Shown: positions 7,241 to 60,800 of the stretch, in pieces
Numbering within the stretch: the first letter of the stretch is position 1
How the letters are laid out: each line of letters opens with the position of its first letter
Source: Sulfurisoma sp.
GTDB taxonomy: Bacteria > Pseudomonadota > Gammaproteobacteria > Burkholderiales > Rhodocyclaceae
Assembly (NCBI GenBank): GCA_030691075.1
Contig: JAUYFI010000085.1
Span: 27,167 to 91,166 of the forward strand
Reading direction: 5' to 3'
DNA length: 64,000 nucleotides
The notes under the pieces: model-generated
Databases searched by the model: none
What the model was told of the DNA's origin: nothing
Seen by the model: only the letters and a program-made list of their open reading frames with translations
Position numbers and translations under genes: made by a program

Positions 7241-8070
7241 GTTCCATCGCCGGCGCGCTGGCCGCGGCACGTCAAGTCATCCCCATCGCCGAGGCACGGC
7301 TGTTGCTGCGCCATGTGCTCGGCGCCGGCGCCGCGTGGCTGGAGGCGCACCGCGACGACGCGCTGGCGCGAGCGGATGCCGAAGCCTTCGCCGCGCTGGT
7401 CGAGCGCCGCGCCGGCGGCGAGCCGGTGGCCTACCTGCTCGGCTTCCGCGAGTTCCACGGCCGCGAGTTTTCGGTGACGCCGGACGTACTGATCCCGCGG
7501 CCCGAGACCGAACTGCTGGTCGAGCTGGCGCGCGAGAAAGTTGAAAAAGTTGGCGCTGGCGAGACGGCGAATATTCTCGACCTCGGCACCGGCAGCGGCT
7601 GCGTGGCCATCACGCTGGCGCTGGAAATCCCCGGAGCCCGTGTCGCCGCCGCCGATATTTCCGCCGCGGCGCTGGCCGTCGCGCGCGCCAACGCGACATT
7701 GCTCGGCGCCGAGGTGAGCTTCGTCGAGAGCGACTGGTTCTCCGGCTTCGCCGGCCGGCGCTTCGACGTCATTGTCTCCAACCCGCCCTATGTCGCCGCC
7801 GCCGACCCGCATCTGAGCGAGGGCGACCTGCGCTTCGAGCCGCCGTCGGCGCTGGCCTGCGGCGCCGACGGCCTCGACGCGATCCGCCGCATCGTTACCG
7901 ACGCATCACGCTACCTCGAAGCGGGCGGCTGGCTGTTGCTCGAACACGGTTACGACCAGGCCGCCGTCCTGCGCGAACTGCTCGCCGCGGCCGGCTTTGC
8001 CGACATCGAGCAGCATCGCGACCTGGCCGGCATCGTGCGCGTTTCCGGTGGGCGATGGGCGGCCGCTTGA
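7237..8070 (+). CDS. prmC: Peptide chain release factor N5-glutamine methyltransferase
   Basis: GTG start overlaps prfA stop; [32 protein letters not shown]. Confidence 0.93.
7544..7569 (+). repeat. Dispersed coding repeat A (AAAGTCGGCGCTGGCGACACGGC), copy in prmC
   Basis: aaaaagttggcgctggcgagacggcg; 21/23 to consensus. Confidence 0.8.
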
Positions 8071-8134
8071 CGAAACATCAGGATGCGATAAACTAATAGC
8101 CGACAATTTCAATCAACTATTAGGAGCAACCCCG

Positions 8135-8458
8135 ATGGACGTCAAAGAGAAGATTCACGAAACCGTGACCGGCAACCCCGTGGTGCTGTTCATGAAGGGC
8201 ACGCCGCAGTTTCCGCAGTGCGGCTTTTCAGCCAAGGCCGTACAGATCCTCAAGGCCTGCGGCGTCGATACGTTCGCCACCGTCAATGTCCTGACCGAGC
8301 CCGAGATCCGCGCGGGCATCAAGGACTACGCCAACTGGCCGACCATTCCGCAGCTGTTCATCAACGGCGAGTTCATCGGCGGCAGCGACATCATGATGGA
8401 AATGTACCAGGCCGGCGAATTGCAGCAGAAGCTGCAGGGCATCGCCAAGGCCGTCTGA
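8135..8458 (+). CDS. grxD: Grx4-family monothiol glutaredoxin
   Basis: VVLFMKGTPQFPQCGFSAKAVQIL, NWPTIPQLFINGEFIGGSDI. Confidence 0.95.
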   Translation: MDVKEKIHETVTGNPVVLFMKGTPQFPQCGFSAKAVQILKACGVDTFATVNVLTEPEIRAGIKDYANWPTIPQLFINGEFIGGSDIMMEMYQAGELQQKLQGIAKAV

Positions 8459-8556
8459 TCGGCCTTTCCGGCGCCCGCCGCAGCCCGAGGGCGGGAGCGC
8501 ATGAGGCAGCGTCCCGGCCTGTCGCGGACGGGGCCCCTCGATATGCCAAATGCGGT

Positions 8557-9330
8557 TTACCCTTTCAGTTCCGCCAGCAGCTTCGCGATCATGCGCTTGG
8601 CCTGGCCGAGGTAGCCGGCGCCGAAGAGGTTGTAGTGGTTGAGGACGTGGTAGAGGTTGTAGAGCGTCTTGCGTGTCTCATAACCCTCGGATAGCGGCCA
8701 GGCCTCGCGGTAGGCGGCCTGGAAGGAATCGGGGAAGCCGCCGAACAGTTCCGACATCGCGATGTCGGCTTCCCGGTCGCCGTAATGGCAGGCCGGATCA
8801 AAGACCACCGGCGTACTGTCGGGGAGCATCCCGGCGTTGCCGCCCCAGAGGTCGCCGTGCAGCAGGCTGGGCGCGGGGTGGCCGGCGACGAAGAAGGCGG
8901 CGACCTTTTCCGTCAGTTCCTCGCCGTCCTGCAATGTCAGGCGATCCATGCCCTTGCCGCGGGCCAGCATCAATTGCGGCCGTAGCCGCCGCTCGGCGAA
9001 AAAGCGCGGCCAGCCGTCCATCCAGCCGTTCGCCTGCGGGCCGAGGCCGATGAAATTGTCGGTCGGCCAGCCGAATTGGGCTGCCGTGCTCCGATGCAGC
9101 GCGGCCAGTTGCCTGCCAAGCACCGCGCCGGCGGCGCGATCGAGCGGCCGCAATTCGAGGTACTCGAGTTCGAGAAAGGCCTGACCCCGCGCCGTCCCGC
9201 TGGCGCCGACTTTCGGCACGCGAACCAGCCCGCTGTCGCGCAGCGCGGCAAGTCCGGCGACCTCGGCCTCGAAGCGCGGCAGCGCGCCGGCCTCGGCGGT
9301 CTTGGTGAACAGGCGTTCGATGACGCGGCT
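8557..9330 (-). pseudogene. Fructosamine kinase family protein, N-terminally truncated (no conventional start codon before the RLFTKTAEAG segment)
   Basis: RLFTKTAEAGALPRFEAEVAGLAAL, STAAQFGWPTDNFIGLGPQANGWMDGWPRFFAERRL, SLLHGDLWGGNAG, FDPACHYGDREADIAMSELFGGFP. N-terminal ~45 aa with glycine-rich motif absent. Confidence 0.7.
9191..9214 (-). repeat. Dispersed coding repeat A, copy in fructosamine kinase remnant
   Basis: gccgtcccgctggcgccgactttc; 19/23. Confidence 0.5.
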
Positions 9331-10667
9331 CAGTTGGCGGCCGGCGAGGCCACCGAGGCCAGCCGCGAGTTGGCGAGCGACAGGCGCGAGGCCATGACCC
9401 GCAGGAAGGACTGGTAGAAGTGCATGCGGGTCGCGTCGGAGGCGTGGCGCAGCGCCTGGCCGGCGATGGTGACGACCCGCGCGGTGGTCTGGGCGACGAC
9501 GTCGGCGCCGCGCACGTGATGGCCGCCGCCGACCACGGCCATTTCGCCGAAGACCTCGCCCGGCGCCAGCACGTTCAGCATGCGTCCCTTCTTGATGACC
9601 CGCAGTTCGCCATCGAGCAGGAAGCAGAAGGAGTCGCCGTGCTCGCCGTCCTTCATCACCAGGGTTTCCGGGCCGACCTCGTCCCAGCGCGAGAAGCGCA
9701 CCACTTCCCAGATCTCGACGTCGGAGAAGTCGTGGAAGAAGTCGATCGCGCGCAGCGACTCGAACTTCTCGGAATCGGGGAAGCGGCTCTGGCGCGAGGC
9801 CAGTTGCTGGTTGCGGAAGGACTGCGCCAGGTCGTGGGCGAACTCCTCCCAGTTGGCATAGCGGGCGTCGAGCTCCTTCTGCATGGCGCGGGCGACGATG
9901 GCGTCGAGGCTGGGGGGCAGGTCGGCGCGGAAGGTCGAGGGCGGCGGCGCGGCGGAGTTGCAGATCGCGTAGATCATGGCGAAGTTGTTGTTGGCGTTGA
10001 ACGGCAGGCGGCCGGTCAGCAACTGGTACATGACCACGCCGAGCGAGTAGATGTCGGTCTGGTGGGTGAGCGGCATTTCCCGCACCTGCTGCGGCGACAT
10101 GTAGGCCGGCGAGCCGACGCCCGACACCTGGGTGCGGGTTTCGTCGCCGGCGCTCTGGATCGCCGCGCCGAAGTCGGAAATCTTGATGTCGCCGCCGCCA
10201 CCGGTCCCGGTGTCGGCGGCAGCCAGCAGGATGTTGGCCGGCTTGATGTCGCGATGGGTGACGCCCATGCGGAAGGCGTAGTCCAGCGCCCGCGTGCACT
10301 TGAAGACGATCTCGACCAGGCGTTCGATCGGCAGCAGGTTGTCGGCGCGGCAGAATTGCTCGAGCGTGCCGCCGGGCACGTATTCCATCACGATATAGTT
10401 CAATTCGTCGCTGCCCGGCTCGGCCATCACGGCGTCGAAGATCTGCACGATGTGCGGATGAATCAGCTTGCCGGCGAGCGAGGCCTCGTTGATCAGCAGG
10501 TTGCGGTAGAGCTTGCCCTTCTCGCGGTCCTTGAGCACCTCGGGAAAGATCACCTTGATCGCCACCTCGCGGTCGGCGAAGGAGTCGTAACCGAGATAGA
10601 CCGTGGAGGTCGCGCCCTCGCCGAGCTTGCCGCGAATCTCGTACTTGCCGATGCGCTCGATGCTCAT
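9330..10667 (-). CDS. Serine/threonine protein kinase with C-terminal cyclic-nucleotide-binding-like domain
   Basis: IGKYEIRGKLGEGATSTVYLGYD, THRDIKPANILL, KISDFGAA; C-term LAPGEVFGEMAVVGGGHHVRGADV. Confidence 0.92.
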   Translation of the reverse strand: MSIERIGKYEIRGKLGEGATSTVYLGYDSFADREVAIKVIFPEVLKDREKGKLYRNLLINEASLAGKLIHPHIVQIFDAVMAEPGSDELNYIVMEYVPGGTLEQFCRADNLLPIERLVEIVFKCTRALDYAFRMGVTHRDIKPANILLAAADTGTGGGGDIKISDFGAAIQSAGDETRTQVSGVGSPAYMSPQQVREMPLTHQTDIYSLGVVMYQLLTGRLPFNANNNFAMIYAICNSAAPPPSTFRADLPPSLDAIVARAMQKELDARYANWEEFAHDLAQSFRNQQLASRQSRFPDSEKFESLRAIDFFHDFSDVEIWEVVRFSRWDEVGPETLVMKDGEHGDSFCFLLDGELRVIKKGRMLNVLAPGEVFGEMAVVGGGHHVRGADVVAQTTARVVTIAGQALRHASDATRMHFYQSFLRVMASRLSLANSRLASVASPAAN

Positions 10668-10674
10668 GCGCCGG

Positions 10675-11957
<1,283 letters not shown>

Positions 11958-11958
<1 letters not shown>

Positions 11959-13352: not shown

Positions 13353-13391
13353 AATGAAAATTCCGGAAATTCAGAGGGTTTCTGAGACTTT

Positions 13392-14393: not shown

Positions 14394-14467
14394 ACTCCCC
14401 CACGCTCACCGTTCCGGTTCGCTGCCTCCCAAGGGGGCGCATGTCGCCTTGGGGCGGCCCGACGGCG
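14394..14467 (+). repeat. Intercistronic dispersed repeat C (copy 1, algZ/algR)
   Basis: actcccccacgctcaccgttccggttcgctgcctcccaagggggcgcatgtcgccttggggcggccc. Confidence 0.8.
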
Positions 14468-14469
14468 CC

Positions 14470-15261
14470 ATGACGAAACTGCGCCTGCTGATCGTCGACG
14501 ACGAGGCGCCCGCGCGCGCGCGCCTGCGCGACCTGCTCGGCGACATCGCGGGCGAGGTTCCGACCGAGGTGGTGGCCGAAGCCGGCGACGGCGTCGCGGC
14601 GCTCGAGCGCATCGACGCCATGGCGCCCGGCGGCATCGACACCGCCCTGATCGACATCCGCATGCCGCGCATGGGCGGCATCGAACTGGCCCAGCACCTG
14701 GCGCGCCTGTCGTCGCCGCCGGCGGTGATTTTCGCCACGGCCTACGACGAGTATGCCGTCAAGGCCTTCGAGCTGAACGCCATTGACTACCTGCTGAAGC
14801 CGGTGCGCGCCGAACGCCTTGCCGCCGCGCTCAAGAAGGCCCGTCCGCTGTCGCTATCGGATTCGGCGCTGCGGCAACTGGCGCCGGCGGGGCGCCGTCA
14901 CCTGCGCTGCCCCGAGCGCGGCCGCGTGCTGCTGGTGCCGGTGGCCGAGGTGCTCTACTTCAAGGCCGATCAGAAGTACGTCACGGCGCGTACCGCCGCG
15001 CGCGAATTCCTGCTCGATGAATCGCTGGCCCATCTCGAACAGGAATTTGTCACGCGTTTTGTCCGCATTCACCGCAACTGCCTGGTCGCGCGCGAAGCGG
15101 TCGCCGGCTGCGCCCGCGAGCCGGTCGGCGATGCAGTCGGCGAGGCGATCGAGCCGTATTGGACGCTGGTGCTCAAGGGCGTGCCCGAGCACCTGCCGGT
15201 CAGCCGCCGGCAGTGGGCGCAGGTCAAGGCACTGCTGGATATCCGATGCCGCGATCCCTGA
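14470..15261 (+). CDS. algR: LytTR-family response regulator
   Basis: LRLLIVDDEAPARARLRDLL, DIRMPRMGGIELA, YLLKPVRAERL, C-terminal LytTR domain FVRIHRNCLVAREAV. Confidence 0.88.
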   Translation: MTKLRLLIVDDEAPARARLRDLLGDIAGEVPTEVVAEAGDGVAALERIDAMAPGGIDTALIDIRMPRMGGIELAQHLARLSSPPAVIFATAYDEYAVKAFELNAIDYLLKPVRAERLAAALKKARPLSLSDSALRQLAPAGRRHLRCPERGRVLLVPVAEVLYFKADQKYVTARTAAREFLLDESLAHLEQEFVTRFVRIHRNCLVAREAVAGCAREPVGDAVGEAIEPYWTLVLKGVPEHLPVSRRQWAQVKALLDIRCRDP

Positions 15262-15394
15262 CCCACCGCGCCTTTCCACCGTGAATCCGCCAGTAGTCCG
15301 GGGTGCGTCGCCGCCCTGCGGCACATCGCACTTGCGAAACTGCTAACATCCGCCATCTTGATCGGATACGCTCCGTTTTCCTCGTTCTCCCGCC

Positions 15395-17138: not shown

Positions 17139-17739
17139 GTGCCCAATTAACACCCCCCGCCCCCCATCCCCCGCCCCGGGGCGGGGGCGACTGGCTTGCT
17201 CGCTGCGCTCGATGGTTATGACCGCCGCGGCAATGTTCGTTCTGGCGGGCTGCGCCTCGCTGCCGCCGCCCGCCGTCCCGCCACGGCCGACTTTTTCCGA
17301 AGGCAGCTTCATCCTCGAAGGCCGGCTCTCCGTGCGGCAGGGCGAGACGCGCCACCACGTCGGCATCAACTGGCGGCACGAGGCGGCGCGCGACGAAATC
17401 TTCCTCTCCGGCCCGCTCGGCCAGGGGCTGGCCGAACTCACCCGCGACGCGACCGGTGCGCGCCTGCTCACCGCCGACCGGCAGGTGATCGATGCCGCCG
17501 ACTGGGAAAGCCTGGCCGAGCGCGCCTTCGGCGCGCGGCTGCCGCTTTCCAACCTGCCGCGCTGGCTGGCCGCCGTCCCGCCAGCGCGCCCCGCAGGAAG
17601 TACCCTTGGGGTGCCGACTTTTGAAATCGACGGCTGGCGCATCGACATTCTCGACGTCGCTGACGGCCGGCCGGTGTTGATCGAACTGCGCCGCGACGAT
17701 ATCGAGGCGCGGCTCAGGATCGACAGCTGGACACGATGA
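17125..17739 (+). CDS. lolB: Outer membrane lipoprotein LolB (true start uncertain: 17125, 17212 or 17218)
   Basis: Lipobox MFVLAGC; FILEGRLSVRQGETRHHVGINWRHEAARDEIFLSGPLGQGLAEL; directly upstream of ispE. Confidence 0.85.
   Translation: MKIKACPINTPRPPSPAPGRGRLACSLRSMVMTAAAMFVLAGCASLPPPAVPPRPTFSEGSFILEGRLSVRQGETRHHVGINWRHEAARDEIFLSGPLGQGLAELTRDATGARLLTADRQVIDAADWESLAERAFGARLPLSNLPRWLAAVPPARPAGSTLGVPTFEIDGWRIDILDVADGRPVLIELRRDDIEARLRIDSWTR
17151..17213 (+). repeat. GC-hairpin repeat ending TTGCTCGCTGCGCTCGATGG (family B copy 1)
   Basis: caccccccgccccccatcccccgccccggggcgggggcgactggcttgctcgctgcgctcgatgg; shares tail with 59744-59828 copy. Confidence 0.75.
17273..17297 (-). repeat. Dispersed coding repeat A, first lolB copy
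   Basis: cgtcccgccacggccgactttttcc; 19/23 with preceding gc. Confidence 0.55.
17572..17622 (-). repeat. Dispersed coding repeat A, long form in lolB with 27-nt hairpin-forming insert
   Basis: gccgtcccgccagc[gcgccccgcaggaagtacccttggggt]gccgactttt. Confidence 0.75.
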
Positions 17740-28607: not shown

Positions 28608-28625
28608 TACAGTAAAAAAGCCGCG

Positions 28626-29756
28626 TCAGCGACTCACACCGCTCCCCTCGCCCCTCGCGGGAGAGGGGCCGGGGGAGAGGGGAGGTTTGACCGTGACGGT
28701 CGCGCCGTGGGTGAGGAAACCGGCGCCATCCAGCGCGACGGTCTCGCCTTCCTTGATGCCGGCGAGGATCTCGACCACGCCGCCCTTCTTGGCGCCGGCC
28801 TGGACGATGCGCTGTTGCGCCTTCTTCTTGCCCTCCTCGTCGACGATGGCATAGACGACCTTGCCGGCCGGGCGCAGCACCACGCTCTGCTCGGGCACCA
28901 CCAGCGCGGCGGCCTTGGCGGCGATCCGTACCGAGGCATTCACCGTGCCGCCGGACTTCAGCGCGCCGTCGTTTTCGATCTCGACGATGACGTCGAGCGC
29001 GCGGCTGGATTCGGAGACGGCGGGGCGGATGTCGGCGATCTTCGCCTCGAATACCCTGCCCGGCGCCTGCGGCGAGGTGAGGCGCACCGCCTGCCCGCGC
29101 GACAGGCGCGGCGCGGCGCTCTCGGGGAAGGGCAGGTGGGCGCGCAGGCGCTGGTTCGATACCAGTTGGAACAGCGGATCGCCGAGCTTGACGTAGTCGC
29201 CCGGCGCGATCAGCTGGCTCTCGATGACGCCGTCGAAGGGCGCGGCGATGGTGGTCTTGCCCACCGCGCGCTTGCCGATGCCGGCGCGGGCCTGGGCGGA
29301 CGCGAGCTGCTCGGCAATGGCCGCGCGCTGGGCGCGGGCGTCGTCGGCCGCGTTCTGCGAGAAGAAACCCTTGGCCACCAGGCTTTGTTGCCGCTCGATC
29401 AGCCTGTCCTGCTGCGCGAGCAGGGCTTCGAGGCGCTTGACCTCGGCCTGCTCGGACTGGCTGGCGAGCGCGAGGTCGGTGGCGTCGATGACGGCGAGCG
29501 TCTCGCCGCGCTTTACCGCCTTGCCGGCGAAGGCGAGGACCCGGGCGACCTTGCCCGCGACTTCGGCGCCGATCTTCGGGTCGATGGCGGCCTCGAGCGT
29601 GCCCAGCGTGTCCTCGGTGACCTCGAAGGCGCCGCTCTTGACCTGCGTCACGGTGATCAGCGCCGGCGGCGGGCCGAATTTCTTTTCCTCCGGTCGTCTG
29701 TCGCAGGCGGCGAGCAGCAGTGCGGCGCAGAGAACGAACGGGAGGTGTCGGATCAT
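28626..29756 (-). CDS. Efflux RND transporter periplasmic adaptor subunit
   Basis: lipobox LLAAC; VAGKVARVLAFAGKAVKRGETLAVID, APFDGVIESQLIAPGDYV; C-terminus derived from repeat. Confidence 0.93.
   Translation of the reverse strand: MIRHLPFVLCAALLLAACDRRPEEKKFGPPPALITVTQVKSGAFEVTEDTLGTLEAAIDPKIGAEVAGKVARVLAFAGKAVKRGETLAVIDATDLALASQSEQAEVKRLEALLAQQDRLIERQQSLVAKGFFSQNAADDARAQRAAIAEQLASAQARAGIGKRAVGKTTIAAPFDGVIESQLIAPGDYVKLGDPLFQLVSNQRLRAHLPFPESAAPRLSRGQAVRLTSPQAPGRVFEAKIADIRPAVSESSRALDVIVEIENDGALKSGGTVNASVRIAAKAAALVVPEQSVVLRPAGKVVYAIVDEEGKKKAQQRIVQAGAKKGGVVEILAGIKEGETVALDGAGFLTHGATVTVKPPLSPGPSPARGEGSGVSR
28641..28685 (-). repeat. GC-hairpin repeat at the 3' end of the RND adaptor gene (encodes LSPGPSPARGEGSG)
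   Basis: gctcccctcgcccctcgcgggagaggggccgggggagagggg. Confidence 0.75.
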
Positions 29757-31021
29757 GGTCGAGGCAAGACAGATTCGAGCGCGAAAAGTTGCGCCACTTC
29801 CTCGCGGCGGCGCACGAGGTGGGTTGTGGCGCCGTCGACCAGCACCTCGGCGGCGCGCGGCCGGGTGTTGTAGTTGGAGCTCATGGCCATGCCGTAGGCG
29901 CCGGCCGAGAGGATGGCCAGCAGGTCGCCGGAGGCCAAGGCGAGTTCGCGGCCGTGGCCGAGGAAATCGCCGGACTCGCAGATGGGGCCGACGATTTCGT
30001 AACGCCTGGTCTCGGCCGCCGTGTCGCCAGCGCCGACTTTTTTCACCGGCACGATGTCGTGCCAGGCCTCGTAGAGCGCGGGGCGGGCCAGGTCGTTCAT
30101 CGCCGCGTCGACCACGGCGAAGTTCTTCTCCGCGCCGTGCTTGATTACCTCGACGCGGGTCAGCAGCAGGCCGGCGTTGCCGACCAGCGAGCGGCCGGGT
30201 TCGAACAGCAGCTTTTCCTTGCGCCCGGCGAGCACGGCAAGCAGCGGCGCCAGGTACTCGCTCGCGGTGGGCGCGGCTTCGTCGCGGTAGCGGATGCCCA
30301 TGCCGCCGCCGACGTCGATGTGCGAGAGCGCGATGCCCTCGCCGGCCAGCGCGTCGACCAGGCCGAGGATCTTCGCGGCGGCCTCGGCGGCGGGCGCGGG
30401 GTCGAGCAGTTGCGAGCCGATGTGGCAGTCGATGCCGCGGATTTCCAGGTGCGGCAGGTCGCGGGCGCGGCGATAGAGCGGCAGCGCCTCTTCGAAGGGA
30501 ATGCCGAACTTGGCGCTCTTGAGGCCGGTCGAGATGTAGGGATGGGTCTTGGGATCGACGTTCGGGTTGACCCGCAGCGAGATCGGCGCGCGCTTGCCCA
30601 GACTGCCCGCGACGTCGTCGAGCGTTTCCAGTTCCGCCGCCGATTCGACGTTGAAGCAGAGGATGCCGGCCGCCAGCGCGGCGCGCATTTCCGCGCGCGA
30701 CTTGCCGACGCCGGAGAACACGACCCTGGCCGGGTCGCCGCCGGCCGCCAGCACGCGGGCCAGTTCGCCGCCGGAGACGATGTCGAAGCCGGCGCCCAGT
30801 CGGGCGAAGACATCGAGGATGCCGAGGTTGGAGTTGGCCTTGACGGCGTAGCAGACGAGGGCGTCGCGACCTGCCAGCGCCTGGCGGTAGCCGTCGTAGG
30901 CAGCCGTCAGCGCGGCGCGCGAATAGACGTAGCAGGGCGTGCCGAACTGGCGCGCGACGGCGTCGAGGGCGACGTCCTCGATGTGCAGCGCGCCGCCGCC
31001 GTCGCGGTGAACGAGGCTCAT
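29753..31021 (-). CDS. lysA: Diaminopimelate decarboxylase
   Basis: YVYSRAALTAAYDGYRQAL, YAVKANSNLGILD, HIDVGGGMGIRY, GPICESGDFLGHGREL. Confidence 0.96.
   Translation of the reverse strand: MSLVHRDGGGALHIEDVALDAVARQFGTPCYVYSRAALTAAYDGYRQALAGRDALVCYAVKANSNLGILDVFARLGAGFDIVSGGELARVLAAGGDPARVVFSGVGKSRAEMRAALAAGILCFNVESAAELETLDDVAGSLGKRAPISLRVNPNVDPKTHPYISTGLKSAKFGIPFEEALPLYRRARDLPHLEIRGIDCHIGSQLLDPAPAAEAAAKILGLVDALAGEGIALSHIDVGGGMGIRYRDEAAPTASEYLAPLLAVLAGRKEKLLFEPGRSLVGNAGLLLTRVEVIKHGAEKNFAVVDAAMNDLARPALYEAWHDIVPVKKVGAGDTAAETRRYEIVGPICESGDFLGHGRELALASGDLLAILSAGAYGMAMSSNYNTRPRAAEVLVDGATTHLVRRREEVAQLFALESVLPRP
30018..30043 (-). repeat. Dispersed coding repeat A, copy in lysA
   Basis: gccgtgtcgccagcgccgactttttt; 23/23. 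Confidence 0.9.
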
Positions 31022-45565: not shown

Positions 45566-46495
45566 ATGGCCTTCTTCCTCGAAACCCTGATCGGCGGCTT
45601 GATGGCGGGCATGCTCTACTCGCTGGTGGCGATAGGCTTCGTGCTGATCTTCAAGGCGTCCGGCGTGTTCAACTTCGCCCAGGGCGCGATGGTGCTGTTC
45701 GCCGCGCTGGCGATGGCGCGTTTTTCCGAGTGGGTTCCCGGCTGGACCGGCGTCAGTAGCCCGCTTTTCGCCAACAGCGTCGCCTTCGTGCTGGCCGGCA
45801 TCATGATGTTCGTCGTGGCCTGGCTGATCGAGCGGCTGGTGCTGCGCCATCTGGTGAACCAGGAAGGTGCCACGCTACTGATGGCGACGCTGGGCATCGC
45901 CTATCTGCTGGAAGGCATCGGCCAGGGCATCTTCGGCAACGACATCTACAAGATCGACGTCGGCATGCCCAAGGAACCGGTGTTCGTGCTGCAGAACGTC
46001 TTCGAGGGCGGCATCCTCATCAATAAGGAAGACTTCATCGCCGCGCTGATCGCCGCGCTGCTGGTCGGCGCGCTGACGCTGTTCTTCCAGAAAACCGCCA
46101 CCGGCCGCGCGCTGCGCGCGGTGGCCGACGACCACCAGGCCGCGCAGTCGATCGGCATTCCGCTCAACCGCATCTGGGTGATCGTCTGGTGCGTCGCCGG
46201 CGTGACGGCGCTGGTCGCCGGCATCATCTGGGGCTCCAAGCTCGGCGTGCAGTTCTCGCTCGCCACGGTCGCCATGCGCGCGCTGCCGGTGGTGATTCTC
46301 GGCGGGCTGACCTCGGTGCCGGGCGCCATCGTCGGCGGGCTGATCATCGGTGTCGGCGAGAAGCTGTCCGAGGTTTTTCTCGGCCCCTATGTGGGCGGCG
46401 GCATCGAGATCTGGTTCGCCTATATGCTGGCGCTGGTTTTCCTGATGTTCCGGCCGCAGGGACTGTTCGGCGAGAAGATCATCGACCGGGTATAG
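45566..46495 (+). CDS. livH: Branched-chain-type ABC transporter permease
   Basis: GLMAGMLYSLVAIGFVLIFKASGVFNFAQGAMVLF. Confidence 0.93.
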   Translation: MAFFLETLIGGLMAGMLYSLVAIGFVLIFKASGVFNFAQGAMVLFAALAMARFSEWVPGWTGVSSPLFANSVAFVLAGIMMFVVAWLIERLVLRHLVNQEGATLLMATLGIAYLLEGIGQGIFGNDIYKIDVGMPKEPVFVLQNVFEGGILINKEDFIAALIAALLVGALTLFFQKTATGRALRAVADDHQAAQSIGIPLNRIWVIVWCVAGVTALVAGIIWGSKLGVQFSLATVAMRALPVVILGGLTSVPGAIVGGLIIGVGEKLSEVFLGPYVGGGIEIWFAYMLALVFLMFRPQGLFGEKIIDRV

Positions 46496-46501
46496 AAAAT
46501 G

Positions 46502-46570
46502 GCCCCCCACGCTCACATTCGTTCGCTGCCCCCCACGGGGGGGCGTAGCCTCCCTTGGGGCGGCCCTGCG
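46502..46570 (+). repeat. Intercistronic dispersed repeat C (copy 2, livH/livM)
   Basis: gccccccacgctcacattcgttcgctgccccccacgggggggcgtagcctcccttggggcggccc. Confidence 0.8.
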
Positions 46571-46581
46571 GGAGACTAGCC

Positions 46582-47658
46582 ATGATTTATCGCGAAAACG
46601 GCCAGTTCAAGACGTCCTACGCGGCGGACCAGCAGATTTTCCCCATCGTTCAGGATCGCTGGGCGATGCTGCTGCTGCTCGTCGTCGCCTTCGTCGGCGT
46701 GCCGCTGCTGTCCAGCGAGTATCTGTTCCGCGCCATTTTCATTCCCTTCCTGATCCTGTCGCTGGCCGCCATCGGCGTGAACCTGCTGGTCGGCTACTGC
46801 GGCCAGATCACGCTGGGCGCCGGCGCCTTCATGGCCGTCGGCGCCTATGCCGCCTACAATTTCTCGATCCGCATCGATGGCATGCCGCTGCTCGGCGCAC
46901 TGCTGCTCGGCGGCCTTTCCGCCGCCGCCATGGGCATCGTCTTCGGCGCGCCCAGCCTGCGGGTGCGCGGCCTCTATCTGGCGATGGCGACGCTGGCGGC
47001 GCAGTTCTTCTGGGACTGGGCTTTCCTGCGCATCAAATGGTTCACCAACGACGCGCCGTCCGGTTCGGTGTCCATTTCCCATCTGCAGGTCATGGGCTGG
47101 CCCATCGAGTCGCCGGTCGAGAAATACCTGTTCTGCCTGACGCTCCTCGCCGTCTTCGCCCTGGCGGCGAAGAACCTGACCCGCAGTTCGATCGGCCGCC
47201 AGTGGATGGCCATCCGCGACATGGACGTCGCAGCCGAGGTGATCGGCATCCGCCCCATGTTCGCCAAACTCTCGGCCTTCGCCGTCAGCTCCTTCTACGT
47301 CGGCGTGGCCGGCGCGCTGTGGGGCTTCGTGCACCTGAGTTCGTGGGAGCCGGCGGCCTTCTCGGTCGATCGCTCCTTCCAGTTGCTGTTCATGGTCATC
47401 ATCGGCGGCATGGGCTCGATCATGGGCAGCTTCTTCGGCGCGGCCTTCATCGTGGTGCTGCCGATTTTCCTCAACCAGATGCTGCCCTGGCTGGGCGAAC
47501 TGGTCGGGCTGTCGATTTCCACCGCCGCCGTTTCCCACGCGGAGTTCATGATCTTCGGGGCGCTGATCGTGTTCTTCCTGATCGTCGAGCCCCACGGCAT
47601 CGCCCGGCTGTGGTCCACGGGCAAGGAAAAACTGCGGCTCTGGCCGTTTCCGCATTAA
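46582..47658 (+). CDS. livM: Branched-chain-type ABC transporter permease
   Basis: GVNLLVGYCGQITLGAGAFMAVGAYAAY. Confidence 0.93.
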   Translation: MIYRENGQFKTSYAADQQIFPIVQDRWAMLLLLVVAFVGVPLLSSEYLFRAIFIPFLILSLAAIGVNLLVGYCGQITLGAGAFMAVGAYAAYNFSIRIDGMPLLGALLLGGLSAAAMGIVFGAPSLRVRGLYLAMATLAAQFFWDWAFLRIKWFTNDAPSGSVSISHLQVMGWPIESPVEKYLFCLTLLAVFALAAKNLTRSSIGRQWMAIRDMDVAAEVIGIRPMFAKLSAFAVSSFYVGVAGALWGFVHLSSWEPAAFSVDRSFQLLFMVIIGGMGSIMGSFFGAAFIVVLPIFLNQMLPWLGELVGLSISTAAVSHAEFMIFGALIVFFLIVEPHGIARLWSTGKEKLRLWPFPH

Positions 47659-49901: not shown

Positions 49902-51121
49902 GCGAGTTCTTCGACTCCCTCGAAACCCGCTCGGCCGACGAAAGAAAGTCGGCGCTGGCGGCACGGCTGCCGCGGCAAATTTCCCGCGCCAAGGCAGCGC
50001 CGTATTTCGCCGAGTCGCTCAGGCATGTCGACGCGGCGGCAGTGACTTCGCGCGCCGCGCTGGCGCGGCTGCCGGTGATCCGCAAGCACCAGCTGATCGA
50101 ACTGCAGAAGGCCCACCGGCCCTTCGGCGGCCTCGTCGCCACGGTGCGCGCCGGGCTGGCGCGCATCCATGCCTCGCCCGGGCCGATCTACGAACCCGAG
50201 GGGCGCGGCGCCGACTACTGGCGCACGGCGCGGGCGCTGTTCGCCGCGGGCTTCCGTGGCGGCGACCTGATCCACAACAGTTTCTCCTATCACATGACGC
50301 CGGGCGCCTGGATCCTCGAGGCCGGCGCGCAGGCGCTGGGCTGCGCCGTCTTTCCCGGCGGCGTCGGCCAGACCGAGCAGCAAGCGCAGGCCATGGCCGA
50401 CCTGCAGCCGGACGGCTACGTCGGCACGCCGTCTTTCCTGCGCATCCTGCTGGAAAAGACCGACGAACTGGGACTGGCCATTCCCTCGCTGAAAAAGGCG
50501 CTGGTCTCGGGCGAGGCCTTCCTGCCGCCGGTGCGCGAGGCACTGCGCGCGCGCGGCGTCGATGGCTACCAGGCCTACGCGACGGCCGATCTCGGCGTCA
50601 TCGCCTACGAGACCGTCGCGCGCGAAGGCCTGGTCGTCGATGAGGATGTCATCGTCGAGATCGTCCGTCCCGGCAGCGGCGACCCGGTGGCCGAGGGCGA
50701 GGTCGGCGAGGTGGTCGTCACCGTTTTCAATCCCGACTACCCGCTGGTGCGCTTCGGCACCGGCGACCTTTCCGCCATCCTGCCCGGCGTCTCGCCCTGC
50801 GGCCGCACGAATATGCGGATCAAGGGCTGGCTCGGCCGCGCCGACCAGACCACCAAGGTCAAGGGCATGTTCGTCCATCCCGAGCAGGTCGATGCCGTGC
50901 TCAAGCGCCATCCCGAAATCCGCCGCGCCCGGCTGGTGGTGACCAATCCCGACAGCCGCGATGCGATGACCCTGCACTGCGAGGGGGCGGGTAACGCCAC
51001 GTTTGCCGCCGCCGTCGCCGAGTCGCTGCGCGAACTCACCAAGCTGCGCGGCGAGGTAGCTTTCGTCGCCAGCCTGCCAAACGACGGCAAGGTGATCAGC
51101 GACGAGAGGAAGTTTGACTGA
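49898..51121 (+). CDS. Phenylacetate-CoA ligase-like AMP-binding protein
   Basis: IHASPGPIYEPEGRGADYWRTARALFAAGFRGGDLIHNSFSYHMTPGAWILEAGAQALG, RIKGWLGRADQTTKVKGMFVHPEQV. Confidence 0.9.
   Translation: MSEFFDSLETRSADERKSALAARLPRQISRAKAAPYFAESLRHVDAAAVTSRAALARLPVIRKHQLIELQKAHRPFGGLVATVRAGLARIHASPGPIYEPEGRGADYWRTARALFAAGFRGGDLIHNSFSYHMTPGAWILEAGAQALGCAVFPGGVGQTEQQAQAMADLQPDGYVGTPSFLRILLEKTDELGLAIPSLKKALVSGEAFLPPVREALRARGVDGYQAYATADLGVIAYETVAREGLVVDEDVIVEIVRPGSGDPVAEGEVGEVVVTVFNPDYPLVRFGTGDLSAILPGVSPCGRTNMRIKGWLGRADQTTKVKGMFVHPEQVDAVLKRHPEIRRARLVVTNPDSRDAMTLHCEGAGNATFAAAVAESLRELTKLRGEVAFVASLPNDGKVISDERKFD
49945..49967 (+). repeat. Dispersed coding repeat A, copy at N-terminus of PaaK-like ligase
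   Basis: aaagtcggcgctggcggcacggc; 22/23. Confidence 0.75.
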
Positions 51122-51463: not shown

Positions 51464-51472
51464 CCCGGCGCC

Positions 51473-53014: not shown

Positions 53015-53016
53015 CG

Positions 53017-54234
53017 ATGGCGCGGCGATCCCTTTCCCCCGACTCCTCCGGCCCGCTGGCCGGCCTGCGCGTTCTCGACCTCACCCGCCTGCTGCCGGGG
53101 CCGGTCGCCACGCTGCACCTGGCCGACCTCGGCGCCGATGTCATCAAGATCGAAGACACCGGTGCCGGCGATTACACGCGCAGCATGGGCGTCGGCGCCG
53201 CCCCCGGCGAGGACAGCTACTTCTTCCGCATCGTCAATCGCAACAAGCGCGGCCTGCGCCTCGATCTCAAGCAGGCGGCGGGAGTGGAAGTCTTCCTGCG
53301 CCTGGCGCGCGACGCCGACGTGATCGTCGAGAGCTTCCGCCCCGGCGTCGTCGACAAGCTCGGCGTCGGTTATGCGGCGGTGAGCGCCATCAATCCGAAG
53401 ATCGTCTATTGCGCCATCACCGGCTACGGCCAGACCGGGCCGTGGCGCAGCCATGCCGGGCACGACATCAACTACGTTGCCACCGCCGGTGTGCTCGACC
53501 AGATCGGCGTGGCCGGCGGTCCGCCGGCGCTGCCCAACTTCCAGATCGGCGACCTGCTCGGCGGCGCGCTGACGGGGCTCGCCGGTATCCTCGCCGGGGT
53601 GATCGCGGCGCGGGCGACGGGGCAGGGGCGCTATGTCGACGTCTCGATGACCGACGCCGTCTTCGCCCACGCCTATTCGCCGCTGCTCTCGGTGCTGAGC
53701 CGGGGCCGCACGCTGCCGCGCGGCGAGGACGCGCTCTCCGGCGGCCTGCCGGGCTACGGCCTCTACCGCACGCAGGATGGCCGCTATCTTGCTGTCGGTG
53801 CGTTGGAGCCCAAGTTCTGGCGCCTGTTCTGCGCCACCCTTGGCCGGCCCGACTTCGAGCCCTACGGCCTGGATGCCGGCCGCGAGGGCGCGCGCGTCAA
53901 GGCGCAGCTGGCCGACATGATCGCGCGGCAGCCGCTGGCCCACTGGGCGAGGCTGTTCGGCAACGTCGATTGCGGCGTGACGCCAGCGCCGACTTTCGAG
54001 GAAGCGATGACGCATCCGCAATTGCGCTCGCGCGGCATGCTGATCGAGCATGACGGCTTGCCGCAGTTCGCGCCGCCGCTGAAGATGAGCGGCTTCGACT
54101 TCGCCGTGCGCCGCGCCGCGCCAAAAGTTCCCAAAGGGACGCAGAGCGCTGGCGCTGACGACACGGCGATCCTGCGCGAGGCGGGCTACGTGGAATCCGA
54201 AATTGCGGAGTTGCGGGCGGCTGGCACAATCTAG
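53017..54234 (+). CDS. CaiB/BaiF-type CoA-transferase
   Basis: LAGLRVLDLTRLLPGPVATLHLADLGADVIKIE, GHDINYVATAGVLDQIG. Confidence 0.94.
   Translation: MARRSLSPDSSGPLAGLRVLDLTRLLPGPVATLHLADLGADVIKIEDTGAGDYTRSMGVGAAPGEDSYFFRIVNRNKRGLRLDLKQAAGVEVFLRLARDADVIVESFRPGVVDKLGVGYAAVSAINPKIVYCAITGYGQTGPWRSHAGHDINYVATAGVLDQIGVAGGPPALPNFQIGDLLGGALTGLAGILAGVIAARATGQGRYVDVSMTDAVFAHAYSPLLSVLSRGRTLPRGEDALSGGLPGYGLYRTQDGRYLAVGALEPKFWRLFCATLGRPDFEPYGLDAGREGARVKAQLADMIARQPLAHWARLFGNVDCGVTPAPTFEEAMTHPQLRSRGMLIEHDGLPQFAPPLKMSGFDFAVRRAAPKVPKGTQSAGADDTAILREAGYVESEIAELRAAGTI
53975..53997 (-). repeat. Dispersed coding repeat A, copy in CoA-transferase
   Basis: ggcgtgacgccagcgccgacttt; 21/23. Confidence 0.6.
54123..54168 (+). 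repeat. Dispersed coding repeat A, diverged long form in CoA-transferase
   Basis: aaaagttcccaaagggacgcagagcgctggcgctgacgacacggcg. Confidence 0.5.
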
Positions 54235-54236
54235 CC

Positions 54237-55520: not shown

Positions 55521-55652
55521 GACGGATCTCCTTCAAATAGGTGGGGCATTCTACGCCCGCCGGCCGCGCCGCGGCTGACGGCCGTTCATGGCATCGTGCT
55601 AGACTCGCGCCCAAAAAAGCGTGCCCGAGATCGGGCCATCCGGAGACCGCAA

Positions 55653-56291
55653 ATGCTGAAACTATTCGTCGTCGAAGACCATGCGCTGGTGCGCGAGGGC
55701 CTGATGCTGGCCCTGCAGGCACTGGCGGTCGACGGCGAGCCGGCCGAGGTCCGGGGCGCCGCCGCGGCCGACGAGGCGCTGGCGCTGCTCGGCGACGACG
55801 CGAACATCGACCTGATCCTGCTCGACGTGATGCTCCCGGGAACCGGCGGGCTGGCGCTGCTGGGGGCGCTGCGCAAGCGCCATCCCGCGGTGCCGGTGCT
55901 GATGCTGTCGGCGCTCGACGACCCGGAAACCGTGCGCCGCGCCATGCGCCAGGGCGCGGCCGGCTTCGTGTCCAAGTCCAGTTCGACCGATACCCTGCTC
56001 GGCGCGGTGCGCGAGGTACTGGCCGGCGGCCGCTACCTGCCGCCGCAATTCGCCGACGCGCCGCCGCCCGCGCGCGGCAACATCCAGACCCGCTTCCGCC
56101 TCACCGCCGCGCAGATGCGCGTGCTCGAACTGCTGGTCGAGGGTAAGCCCAACCGCGAGATCGCCGAGGTGATTGGTGTCACCGAAGGCACGGTGAAGAT
56201 CCACGTTTCCGCGATCTTCAAGTCGCTCGACGTGTCGAATCGCTCCCAGGCCCTGCTGGTGGCGGGGCGCCATGGGCTGAAAGCCCGATAG
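55653..56291 (+). CDS. LuxR/NarL-type response regulator
   Basis: MLKLFVVEDHALVREGLMLAL, LLDVMLPGTGGL; HTH LTAAQMRVLELLVEGKPNREIAEVIGVTEGTVKIHVSAIFKSL. Confidence 0.93.
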   Translation: MLKLFVVEDHALVREGLMLALQALAVDGEPAEVRGAAAADEALALLGDDANIDLILLDVMLPGTGGLALLGALRKRHPAVPVLMLSALDDPETVRRAMRQGAAGFVSKSSSTDTLLGAVREVLAGGRYLPPQFADAPPPARGNIQTRFRLTAAQMRVLELLVEGKPNREIAEVIGVTEGTVKIHVSAIFKSLDVSNRSQALLVAGRHGLKAR

Positions 56292-56293
56292 GC

Positions 56294-56989
56294 TCAGGCC
56301 GCCATTGCCGGTTCGGTATGCATTGCCGCGGCCCTGGCCGGAATCGTGGCGCGCGGCGCGGTATCTTTCGTGATCGCGTGGTCGATGGAAATCTGCAACA
56401 GTTCCAGCACCTGATGGGCCACGCCGCGCGCGGCGTTGGCCAGCGGCGTCGGCAGCGCGGCGGGGATTTCCTTCTGCAGCAGAACCTTCGACGCTGAAAG
56501 CGAGAACACCGGTTCGAGCAGGCGGTCGCGGTAGGGAGCGAGCATGTCCTGCACGGTCTTTTCGGCGGCCTCGCGCTGCCAGGCGTTGGTCGGCCACTGC
56601 GTCGGGATGGCGTAGGCGCGCGGGAACATCTCGAGGTCACGCACGACGGTGCGGATGTCCTCGTGTGAATCGCGGAAGGGCAGCAGCACGAGGTCGGCCA
56701 CGCCGTAGAGCTTGCGGTCCATCTCGCTGCGGTTGCCGCCGCCGTCGATCACGCCCATCCAGGCCTGGAGGGAGCGGATCTTGTCGGTGACCTTGGTGAG
56801 CGCCTCGCGGGTGCGGGCATCGGCGACGAGGTAGCGGCGCCCGGCGGGATCGAGTGGTTCGCGCCAGGTGTCGGTGAGCACGCAGACCGAGCGCTGACCG
56901 AGTAGCCCGAGGCCCTGGCACAGCATGTGCGAAAGCGTGGTCTTGCCGGTGCCGCCCTTGTTGCCGATAACGCAGATGATGTCCGCCAT
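56294..56989 (-). CDS. ParA-like P-loop ATPase (orphan)
   Basis: MADIICVIGNKGGTGKTTLSHMLCQGLGLLG. Confidence 0.85.
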   Translation of the reverse strand: MADIICVIGNKGGTGKTTLSHMLCQGLGLLGQRSVCVLTDTWREPLDPAGRRYLVADARTREALTKVTDKIRSLQAWMGVIDGGGNRSEMDRKLYGVADLVLLPFRDSHEDIRTVVRDLEMFPRAYAIPTQWPTNAWQREAAEKTVQDMLAPYRDRLLEPVFSLSASKVLLQKEIPAALPTPLANAARGVAHQVLELLQISIDHAITKDTAPRATIPARAAAMHTEPAMAA

Positions 56990-57000
56990 GTCTATCCTCC

Positions 57001-57026
57001 ACACGCCCGAAGCCGGATGGGCGTGT
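57001..57026 (-). promoter_or_regulatory. Leader hairpin ACACGCCC-N10-GGGCGTGT directly before SD of ParA-like gene
   Basis: Perfect 8-bp stem; minus strand continues GGAGGATAGACATG. Confidence 0.65.
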
Positions 57027-57091
57027 CAGGCTGGGATTATTGGGGAAGGCGGGGCGGGGTGATGGGGGGAAATGCGGCGTAATCGCGGGTT

Positions 57092-57883
57092 TTATCGGCC
57101 GGCGGGGCGGTAGCAGTAGAGCTGGGTCGCGCGGCTGTCCGTGACTTCCACGATGGTTTCGGCCGCCACGCCGGGGATTTCGAAGCTGTTGCTGACCAGC
57201 AGACTGCCCGGCCGCATCTCTGCGCCGGCCTTGGCCCACAGCCGCGCCATCGGCACCGGCGAGAGGAAGGCGTAGGCGACTTCGAACAGGCCGAGGTGCT
57301 GCGCCCAGAAATCGCCGCGGCGGACGCGGCAGTTGGGCAGGCCGGCGGTGTTGAGTCGAGCCCACAGCCAGGTCAGCGGCGCGTGCTCGATGCCGACGAA
57401 CTCGCAGTCCGGCCGTTCCCGCGCCAGGGTCTTGAGCAGCCGGCCGTCGCCGCAGCCGAGATCGACGACATGGCAGGGTGTGGCCGGCAGCAGCCCGACG
57501 ACTGCCCGCGCCGTGGCGGCATTGCTGAGATACAGCGGCACGCGGCTCGTGTCGGTGCGCCAGAACACCAGCAGCAGCAGGATGAAGCCGGCGAGATACC
57601 AGGCCGGTGCGATGGCCAGGCGACTCGCCAGCACCGCCAGCGGCATGAAGCCGAGATGGATCGGCAGCCACCAGCGCGGCGCCTCGAGCTTGTGGCTGAC
57701 GAAGGCAGCGCAAAAGCCCTGGAAGACGGCGAAGCCGAGCAGGTAGGCGAAGGGGATGTCGCCGCTTTTCAACATGCGCTGAAACACCAGTGCGACCAGC
57801 CCGCCGGCGATCAGCCCGCCGAGAACCTGGGCGATCAGCGCGGCGCGCAGCGGCGGTATCGGTTCAGGTTCCCAGCGCGTCAC
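57092..57883 (-). CDS. Membrane-anchored class I SAM-dependent methyltransferase (GTG start)
   Basis: N-terminal TM helices; CHVVDLGCGDGRLLKTLARERPDCEFVGIE. Confidence 0.85.
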   Translation of the reverse strand: MTRWEPEPIPPLRAALIAQVLGGLIAGGLVALVFQRMLKSGDIPFAYLLGFAVFQGFCAAFVSHKLEAPRWWLPIHLGFMPLAVLASRLAIAPAWYLAGFILLLLVFWRTDTSRVPLYLSNAATARAVVGLLPATPCHVVDLGCGDGRLLKTLARERPDCEFVGIEHAPLTWLWARLNTAGLPNCRVRRGDFWAQHLGLFEVAYAFLSPVPMARLWAKAGAEMRPGSLLVSNSFEIPGVAAETIVEVTDSRATQLYCYRPAGR

Positions 57884-60800
57884 GCAGTTTGTCCCGTTTG
57901 TGCCGTGCCGCCAGCGCCGACTTTTTCCTGACGTGGCCGAAGCCCCGGATTTCCTGCGGCAGCGTGGCGAGTTCGATGGCGCCGGCGCGCGTCGCGGGGG
58001 ACAGTCGTGCCAGGATCAGCGCGACGTCGTCCTCGTAGTCGGCGATGAGTTGCCGGTCGAGTTTCCGCTCGGGACCGCGGCCGAAGATGTCCCAGGGCGT
58101 GCCGCGCAGGCGGCGCGCCCTGGCCAGCCAGCGAAAGGCCGTCATCATCCACGGCCCGAACGCGATTTTGGCGGTGCGCCCGGTAGTCGGGTCGGGCCGC
58201 GCCAGCAGCGGCGGGGCGAGGTGGAAACGCAGCGTGAAATCGCCCTCGAAAGCGGCATTGACGCGCTCGAGAAAATCGCTCTCGACATAGAGCCGCGCGA
58301 CCTCGTACTCGTCCTTGATCGCCAGCAGCTTGAAGTAGCCGCGCGCCACGGCTTCGGTCAGCGCCGTGTCGCCAGCGCCGACTTTCTCATCGGCGGCGCG
58401 CACGCGTTCGACCCGTGCCGAATAGCGCGCCGCGTAGGCGGCGTCCTGGTAGGCGGTGAGGAAGGCGACGTGCTCGGCGATCAGTTCGTCCAGCGTGGGT
58501 GGCGTACTTTCGACAGCGGCCGGCAGCAATCGCGCGACGCCCGCCGGATCGTGCGCGGCGCGTCGGCCCCAGGCGAAGGCCAGCAGATTCTGCTCGACCG
58601 CGACGCCGTTGAGCTCGATGGCGCGCGCCAATGCGACTTCCGCCAGCGGCACCATGCCGAGCTGCCAGCAGTAGCCCAGCAGCAGCGAGTTGGCGTGGAT
58701 CGCGTCGCCCATCAGCTGCGCCGCCAGCGTCGAGGCGTCGAGGCAGAACACGGCCTCCGCGCCCGCCGCATCGCGCAACGCCTGCCGCATGCGTTCCAGC
58801 GGGAACCGCCAATCGGGGTTGTGCGTGAATTCGGCCGTCGGCGTCTCGGCGCAATTGACCGCCACGCGCGTGCGGCCGGCCTGCATCTTGGCCAGCGCCT
58901 CGTTCGATGCCGAGACCACGACGTCGCCACCGATCACCGCGTCGGCCTCGCCGGTGGCGATGCGCACGGCATGGATCGCGGTCGGGTCGTCGCAGATGCG
59001 AATGTGGGAGAAGACCGCGCCGCCCTTCTGGGCGAGGCCGGTCATGTCGAGCACGGTCACGCCCTTGCCGTCGATGTGCGCGGCCATGCCGATCAGCGCG
59101 CCGAGGGTCACCACGCCGCTGCCGCCGACGCCGGTGACGAGAATGCCATAGGGCTCCCCGGTACTGGAGAAACTCGGCGGTGGCGGGACGGCGATATCGG
59201 CATCGTGACCGATGGCGCGGCCCTTGCGCACGCGGCCGCCGATCACCGAGACGAAGCTGGGGCAGAAGCCATTGACGCAGGTGTAGTCCTTGTTGCAGGC
59301 CGACTGGTCGATGGCACGCTTGCGCCCGAAGTTCGTCTCGACCGGCACCACGGCGAGGCAGTTGCTGGTTACGCCGCAGTCGCCGCAGCCTTCGCAGACC
59401 AGCGCGTTGATGAACACGCGGCGCGGCGGGTCGATGAGCTTGCCGCGCTTCCTGCGGCGGCGCTTCTCGGCGGCGCAGGTCTGGTCAAAGATGATGGCCG
59501 AGACGCCGGGGCACTCGCGGAATTCGCGCTGGATGACGTCGAAGTCGTCGCGGTGGCGGATGCCGACGCCATGCGGCAGGTCGGCGACATGCCAGCTTCT
59601 CGGGCTGCCGTCGGTCACCACGACGACATGGCCGACGCCCTCGGCGTGCAGTTGGCGCGCGATGTCCGGCACCGTCAGGGTGCCGTCGATGGGCTGGCCG
59701 CCAGTCATGGCGACGGCGTCGTTGTAGAGGATCTTGTAGGTGACCCCTTTGAGTTCCCCATCTTTCGAGCGCAGCGAGCAACCGTCATCCCCTCCCGCGG
59801 GGAGGGGGCTGGGGGGTGGGCCGTTGAATGCCGCAACGGCTGCTCGCACAGCGAGCAGACCGGAATGGAAGTAGGTGCCGTCGCCGAGATTGACGAAAAC
59901 GTGGCGCGTCTCGGTGAAGGGCGCCTGGCCGATCCAGGCTGCGCCCTCGCCGCCCATGTGCGAGAAGGTGGCCGTGCCGCGGTTCATCCACGTCACCATG
60001 TAGTGGCAGCCGATGCCGGCCAGCGCGCGCGAGCCTTCGGGCACCTTGGTCGAGGTGTTGTGCGGGCAGCCCGGGCAGAACCAGGGCACGCGGCCGATCG
60101 GAATCGCCGCTGGGCCGGCGTGTTCCTTGGCCTCGATGATGGCGAGTCGCGCGCGGATGTGCTCCGAGGTGAAGAAGCGCTCGATGCGCGCGGCGATGAC
60201 CTTGGCGATCAGGGCCGGCGTCAACTCGCCGGTCGCCGGCAACAGCCACTCGCCATGCGGCAGGGACCACTCGCCGCGTTCGTCGAACTTGCCGATGACT
60301 CGCGGCCGCACATCCTCGCGCCAATTGTAGAGTTCCTCCTTCAACTGGTACTCGATGAGCTGGCGCTTTTCCTCGACGACGAGGATTTCCTCGAGGCCTT
60401 CGGCGAACCGGCGCACGCCCTCGGATTCGAGCGGCCAGACCATGCCGATCTTGTAGAGGCGGATGCCGATCTCGGCGGCGAGCATGTCGTCGATGCCGAG
60501 ATCGTCGAAGGCCTGGCGCACGTCGAGATAGCTCTTGCCGGCGGCGATGATGCCGAGTCGCGGTCGCGGGGCGTCGATGACGATGCGGTTGAGGCCGTTG
60601 GCTCGGCAGTAGGCGAGCGCGGCATAGAGCTTGTGGTTGAGCAGCCGCGCTTCCTGCACCAGGCGGTCGTCGGGCCAACGGATGTTGAGGCCGTCGGGCG
60701 GGAGTTCATAGTCGGTTGGCAGGGTGATGACCAGCCGCTCGGGCGAGAGGTCGATGGTGGCCGAGGACTCGACGGTGTCGGCCACGGCCTTGAAGGCCAC

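What the first reader, a model, noticed from the sequence alone, without database searches (positions are those of the whole stretch)
7544..58386. A ~23-nt element recurs inside protein-coding genes in both orientations and multiple reading frames
Consensus AAAGTCGGCGCTGGCGACACGGC. By eye: 7544 (prmC), 9191 (fructosamine kinase), 17273 and 17572 (lolB), 30018 (lysA), 49945 (PaaK-like), 53975 and diverged 54123 (CoA-transferase), 57902 and 58363 (oxidoreductase). The copies in lysA and 58363 are identical over 24 nt; those at 49945 and 57902 are identical over 23 nt. It is read as KVGAGDTA (lysA, 58363; KVGAGET in prmC), RKSALAAR (49945, 57902) and, antisense, TPAPTFEE (53975) or GVPTFE (17572). 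Conservation of DNA across frames and orientations in unrelated proteins indicates a DNA-level repeat, not a protein motif. Several copies sit in linkers between conserved motifs (before prmC motif I, before GPICESGDF in LysA, before ALTEAVARGYFKL in the oxidoreductase), as expected for tolerated insertions. The closest known analogy is the Rickettsia palindromic elements, but I do not recognise this sequence as a named family. Copies at 9191, 17273, 49945 and 53975 could partly reflect native codons.
Basis: partly seen in the sequence, partly recalled or inferred. Interest (0 to 1): 0.88.

Follow-up and report, generated by a model that had tools for sequence, protein, structure and literature searches.

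The report
Genome-wide DNA watermark resembling uptake signal
A 23-letter DNA word recurs about 500 times in this environmental bacterium and its relatives, mostly inside genes in every reading frame, and it arose by rewriting existing sequence rather than by inserting itself, which is how the 'self-DNA' tags used in natural gene uptake behave and which has so far been described in only two bacterial families.

Summary
The consensus is AAAAGTCGGCGCTGGCG-NN-ACGGCG. About 480 copies lie in the 3.39 Mb home genome, balanced between strands; the reversed control gives 0. In sampled coding DNA there are 60 copies against 0 in codon shuffles. Copies occupy all six reading frames and intergenic DNA. 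At least six genera of the family carry more than 200 copies; another carries a clear dialect (AAAGTCGACGCTGG...), and most other genera carry almost none.

The insertion (Rickettsia-element-like) reading fails. Orthologues lacking the motif have the same length in 14 of 25 comparisons, and none is shorter by about 23-27 nt. At shared sites the 21 core positions are more conserved than the flanks (96% vs 85%), while the two NN positions drift (62%). One site carries the motif in opposite orientations in different species.

Best explanation: a DNA-uptake-signal-like watermark that spreads by in-place mutation plus biased uptake and recombination. Function is inferred, not shown. [quoted passage not shown]

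A second, unexplained layer: 'long' copies carry a 21-, 24- or 27-nt insert inside the motif, and relatives usually have the plain motif at the same site, as in lolB.

The parts
7546..7568 (+). short motif (S) in prmC, read KVGAGETA; 2 mismatches
   Evidence: the same loop carries S, L1 or L3 in all 6 motif-bearing relatives compared and nothing in G012
9191..9213 (-). weak S copy (4 mismatches) in the fructosamine kinase gene; not in G001/G003/G012 at equal length
17272..17294 (-). degenerate S copy antisense in lolB; G001 has a closer copy at the same site, no length change
17572..17621 (-). long form L1 in lolB: S with a 27-nt inner block; G001 and G003 have plain S at this site, exactly 27 nt shorter
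30018..30040 (-). S in lysA, perfect consensus; the same loop carries S in G001, G002, G003, G004, G011, G022, not in G012
49945..49967 (+). S in the AMP-binding/PaaK-like gene, frame KSALAAR; same site in G004, absent without length change in G012
53974..53996 (-). S antisense in the CoA-transferase III gene; present in G001, absent without indel in G004
54124..54167 (+). long form L4 near the 3' end of the CoA-transferase gene; G022 has an S-like sequence 21 nt shorter at this site
57902..57924 (-). S in the POR/DUF6537 oxidoreductase gene; shared with G001
58363..58385 (-). S in the same oxidoreductase gene, perfect consensus; G001 lacks it and is 12 nt shorter; G012 lacks it with no gap
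59170..59192 (+). weak S copy antisense in the same gene; recognisable in G001, G004 and G011, absent in G012

Best explanation
The short element is a fixed DNA signal word of about 25 nt (AAAAGTCGGCGCTGGCG-NN-ACGGCG) that some cellular protein recognises. It accumulates by in-place sequence change wherever the host protein or intergenic DNA tolerates it, in either orientation. The mechanism I think most likely is the uptake-signal cycle known from Neisseria and Haemophilus: the competence pilus preferentially takes up DNA fragments carrying the word, those fragments recombine into the chromosome, and alleles closer to the word are therefore copied more often (molecular drive), giving hundreds of copies and genus-specific dialects. 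Shown here: DNA-level motif, substitution origin, core constraint with two free positions, dialects, even and unpolarised spread, competence genes present. Inferred: recognition by the uptake machinery. Some copies later gained a 21-27 nt inner block by an unknown route.
For: Copy number and control. Discrete family with tight boundaries, invariant ACG and two free positions. Six frames biased to benign peptides (KVGAGDTA 30, AVSPAPTF 27, RVASADF 24, KSALATR 20, against 6 and 4 for the other two); 111 of 142 in CDS, flat along genes. No 23-27 nt indel at motif-less orthologues (14/25 zero; no value below -15); same site with opposite orientation at equal length in G000 vs G001/G003. Core 96% vs flank 85% vs NN 62% identity at 13 shared sites. 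Dialect in G072 and a genus-specific 3' context in G022. On the 2.56-Mb contig of G022, copies lie on both strands at similar density in the first 1 Mb and the rest. ComEC and a ComP_DUS-domain pilin occur in the home genome and nearly all relatives. Known uptake sequences were proposed to evolve by point mutation in pre-existing sequence (PMC1939737) and to come in dialects (PMC3630211).
Against: No uptake experiment exists. ComEC and the pilin are also in motif-less genera, so they do not discriminate. The word is about twice as long as known DUS/USS (ca. 9-12 nt, PMC12616744). No opposite-orientation pairs under 200 nt in 442 kb, though one 130-nt pair exists elsewhere (L009); DUS inverted pairs are common from general knowledge. 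The core-genome enrichment reported for DUS was not seen in a very small sample (14 copies in 65 kb aligned, 3 in 12 kb unaligned). Viral contigs chosen for one copy still hold further copies at 0.43 per 7 kb (host about 1 per 7 kb), so no clear viral exclusion. No uptake-sequence analogue of the inner blocks is known to me.
Confidence: 0.6

Rival explanations
1. The word is the binding site of a chromosome-maintenance or repair protein (nucleoid organiser, segregation or recombination hotspot factor) and is selected directly, without DNA uptake.
For: Even genome-wide spread (mean spacing 5.0 kb, CV 0.78), strong core constraint, free positions.
Against: No strand polarity or regional clustering on the G022 contig, unlike KOPS/Chi or matS/parS. 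Copies sit in nearly full match to a 21-position consensus, more than a threshold binding site needs in 3.4 Mb. Patchy by genus with dialects, which essential maintenance sites rarely show.
Confidence: 0.22
2. Short-patch copying: single-stranded DNA carrying the word replaces partly matching sequence by micro-homology repair, a selfish or mutational copy process with no uptake function; the long forms are products of the same process.
For: Long and short forms share ends and swap at orthologous sites; some motif-less orthologues match at only 8-13 of 21 positions; a similar recombination origin was argued for many recent neisserial DUS (PMC2397512).
Against: Passive copying does not explain core constraint over genus-level time with two neutral positions, nor dialects. 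Many orthologues show intermediate matches (15-18 of 21).
Confidence: 0.13
3. Insertion element in ORFs, like Rickettsia palindromic elements.
For: Copies lie in loops of unrelated proteins; the inner 21-27 nt blocks of long forms are real indels.
Against: No 23-27 nt length difference at short-motif sites. Not a stable palindrome.
Confidence: 0.03

Closest known systems
DUS of Neisseriaceae (ATGCCGTCTGAA and dialects)
   Same: Hundreds of copies, both strands, inside and outside genes, genus dialects, in situ evolution, betaproteobacterial hosts with type IV pili and ComEC
   Different: Unrelated sequence; about 25 nt with an internal free pair instead of 12 nt; about 1 per 7 kb instead of about 1 per 1.1 kb; long forms with inner 21-27 nt blocks; no uptake test; no receptor known
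USS of Pasteurellaceae (AAGTGCGGT and variant)
   Same: Intragenic, both orientations, evolves by point mutation, longer recognised motif around a core
   Different: Sequence unrelated, different class; the core here spans nearly the whole motif
Rickettsia palindromic elements
   Same: Located in coding sequence of unrelated genes in several frames
   Different: Those are longer palindromic insertions; here no indel and no stable palindrome
HIP1 of cyanobacteria
   Same: Massively over-represented short word in coding DNA, not an insertion
   Different: HIP1 is an 8-bp perfect palindrome tied to DNA methyltransferases (PMC4390886)
REP/REPIN elements
   Same: Dispersed short repeats; the inner blocks of long forms contain small inverted repeats
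   Different: REPs are extragenic palindromes moved by RAYT; here 78% of copies are intragenic

Membership tests
DNA uptake sequence (DUS/USS) | Strongly over-represented short word on both strands, within and outside genes | tested here: met
DNA uptake sequence (DUS/USS) | Arises by change of existing sequence, not by insertion | tested here: met
   14/25 motif-less orthologues at zero length change, none at -23 to -27;
DNA uptake sequence (DUS/USS) | Related genera share or vary the word (dialects) | tested here: met
   G072 AAAGTCGACGCTGG..., G022 3' context CAC
DNA uptake sequence (DUS/USS) | Host has competence machinery | tested here: met
   ComEC and a ComP_DUS-domain pilin, but also in motif-less relatives
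DNA uptake sequence (DUS/USS) | Enriched in core genome, depleted in recently acquired DNA | tested here: inconclusive
   14 copies in 65 kb aligned vs 3 in 12 kb unaligned; viral contigs inconclusive
DNA uptake sequence (DUS/USS) | The word raises DNA uptake or transformation and a pilin binds it | not testable with these tools
   needs experiment
Rickettsia palindromic element-like insertion | Presence equals an in-frame insertion relative to orthologues | tested here: not met
Rickettsia palindromic element-like insertion | Long palindrome | tested here: not met
   25-nt consensus, weak fold z -1.8
KOPS/Chi-type polar motif | Strand polarity by replichore | tested here: not met
   G022 2.56-Mb contig, both strands at similar density in both parts compared
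HIP1-type iterated palindrome | Perfect palindrome | tested here: not met
   consensus is asymmetric

The most novel reading that the evidence does not exclude
A third, independently evolved self-DNA watermark for natural transformation, in a clade of Sulfuritalea-like betaproteobacteria. Its sites also serve as landing places for several families of 21-27 nt micro-inserts, a form of site-specific micro-insertion not described for any uptake sequence.
Probability: 0.35. Interest if true: 0.9.

Novelty: new variant of a known kind. Interest (0 to 1): 0.82.

Why it matters
Uptake signals are the clearest case of bacteria tagging their own DNA, and a 2025 paper states that only Neisseriaceae and Pasteurellaceae are known to have them (PMC12616744). 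A third, unrelated word with dialects in uncultured environmental betaproteobacteria would show that such systems arise repeatedly, would let the drive model be tested on many genera of one family, and would point to a new pilus-DNA recognition pair. It also warns that lineage-specific peptides such as KVGAGDTA or RKSALATR in these proteins are DNA signals, not protein function. The long forms show a recurrent 21-27 nt insertion inside one sequence word, with no known mechanism.

Tried and rejected
Insertion of the short element: rejected by anchor-distance analysis with shifted control windows (354/371 zero). Chance or native codons: rejected by codon and synonymous shuffles, though single weak copies (11903, perhaps 9191) may be native codons. 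KOPS-like polarity: not seen. ComP_DUS pilin (PF16732) and ComEC as discriminating genes: nearly ubiquitous in the order, so uninformative. Inner blocks as free-standing elements: most copies of I1-I4 lie between motif halves, except an I1 relative (TCCCCCAAGGGGACTTCCTTCGGGGCG) that also occurs alone. Stable DNA hairpins in long forms: not better than shuffles. Similar-size words in motif-less G018 and G029: none among top 12-mers. Literature: no paper with the sequence GTCGGCGCTGGCG and none found linking Rhodocyclales/Sulfuritalea to uptake sequences.
Full report
What is there. The window belongs to a 3.39-Mb metagenome assembly (G000). Genome-wide there are 473 copies with at most 3 mismatches, 235 forward and 238 reverse, with 0 for the reversed word.

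Shape of the signal. In 462 kb of sampled home genome, copies form a discrete class. With the two free positions left out of 21 scored positions, the mismatch spectrum is 29, 28, 19, 6, 7, 11 for 0-5 mismatches, before background takes over at 6; in 200 kb each of motif-less G018 and G029 it is 0, 0, 0, 0, 0 up to 4 mismatches. Information runs from about -1 to +23 and stops sharply. Positions 17-18 are nearly free (A/G/C then C/G) while the following ACG is invariant. This looks like a recognition sequence, not randomly decaying copies of a mobile element.

DNA level, not protein level. Among 142 copies in three genomes of the genus, 111 lie in called genes, in all six frames, biased to the four frames that give harmless peptides (30, 27, 24, 20 against 6 and 4), and flat along the gene; 31 lie between genes or at their edges, 22% against 16% of the sequence. 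Codon shuffles give 0 against 60 copies in coding sequence; protein-preserving synonymous shuffles give 3.9.

Not an insertion. For every copy I placed anchors on both sides and measured the distance between them in orthologous DNA. Where the partner lacks the motif (25 comparisons), 14 have identical length and no partner is shorter by more than 15 nt; an insertion would give about -23 to -27. Shifted control windows are unchanged in 354 of 371 cases. In prmC, the six motif-bearing relatives carry the motif or a long form in the same loop and the motif-less genus does not. In lysA the same loop carries the word in all six relatives at shifting offsets while loop length varies from -12 to +45 nt, and motif-less G012 is 15 nt shorter. 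At one site (L041:19062) the home genome carries the word on one strand, and G001 and G003 carry it on the other strand, with no length change.

Constraint. At 13 shared sites between the home genome and congeners, the 21 core positions are 96% identical, flanks 85%, and the two free positions 62%. The core is held while neighbouring bases and the free pair drift.

Distribution. In 151 genomes of the family, six genera (g1, g2, g9, g20, g63, g88) have more than 200 copies in at least one member, with counts from 242 to 726 in the members searched. g70 has 62 and g24 34 in one member; most others have 0-8. De novo word counting in g70 (G072) finds AAAAGTCGACGCTGG as the top word, a one-base dialect; G022 has a different 3' neighbour context. 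Motif-less genera G018 and G029 have no comparable word. Among representatives of other families of the order, only two carry any match, 4 and 1. On the 2.56-Mb contig of G022, copies lie on both strands at similar density in the first megabase and the rest. In the home genome spacing averages 5.0 kb with CV 0.78.

Long forms. Some copies carry an inner block: 27 nt (L1), 24 nt (L2, L3) or 21 nt (L4) between AAAGT(CGGC) and (G)CTGGCG-NN-ACGGC. Orthologous sites often have the plain or near-plain motif and are shorter by the block: L1 in lolB vs G001 and G003 (-27 each), L1 at L040 vs G001 (-27), L3 at L033:3642 vs G001 (-24), L3 of G003 vs the home genome (-24), L4 at 54124 vs G022 (-21), an L2 type of G011 vs G004 (-27). 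Other comparisons gave different lengths or no motif. L1 is confined to three of the four members of genus g1 (22, 11 and 14 copies, none elsewhere among 61 genomes), while the short word spans at least six genera, so the short word is older. The blocks contain small inverted repeats but do not fold better than shuffles. How a 21-27 nt block enters the word is not explained.

Mechanism. The pattern matches what is reported for uptake sequences: proposed in situ evolution by point mutation under molecular drive (PMC1939737), a recombination link (PMC2397512) and dialects (PMC3630211). The home genome and nearly all relatives have ComEC and a ComP_DUS-domain pilin, but so do motif-less genera, so this is permissive evidence only. 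A direct chromosome-protein motif and a short-patch copying process remain possible. I give 0.6 to the uptake reading, 0.22 and 0.13 to those two, and 0.03 to the insertion reading.

Membership. It works like an uptake sequence in every computable respect except core-genome enrichment, which was not seen in a small sample. Membership cannot be claimed without an uptake test.

Limits. Gene calls were made with a simple codon-usage script. The relatives were sampled in part. The 25 motif-less comparisons are not all independent, since some sites were compared with more than one genome. Direction of change (gain vs loss) is not polarised for most sites.

Noticed in passing
window 46495-46585: Intergenic G/C-rich inverted-repeat sequence of about 75-90 nt with many copies (80-96%) in G001, G003 and G004; a different repeat family from the motif.
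   Followed up: no
window 14397-14475, 17154-17213 and 28617-28685: Further stretches that match many places in the relatives (about 80-93%), i.e. additional dispersed repeat families.
   Followed up: no
home genome loci L031-L050: CCGTTCGTGGTGAGCCTGTCGAA-type word about 25-28 times in 462 kb, and AAACAGAGGGATTGAG words 17 times; G022 has another set of words at 57-60 copies in 220 kb. The latter two look like CRISPR repeats.
   Followed up: no
G109:C1:1461266-1502266; G082 contigs C66, C104, C557; G081:C50: Genomes otherwise almost free of the motif hold local clusters of it, suggesting DNA acquired from motif-bearing donors (or binning contamination).
   Followed up: no
window 9684-10661 and 11017-11958: Neighbouring diverged direct repeats (71-76%), probably tandem paralogues; one encodes a Ser/Thr-kinase-like glycine loop that mimics the motif at 11903.
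   Followed up: no
L081:8808-8991 (G001, orthologous to window 49900): About 124 nt of extra sequence in G001 just upstream of the AMP-binding gene; the motif is absent there.
   Followed up: partly
L040:11928(-) and L096:4372(+): Composite repeats in which an L3 long form is directly followed by an inverted relative of the L1 inner block (CGCCCCGAAGGAAGTCCCCTTGGGG).
   Followed up: partly
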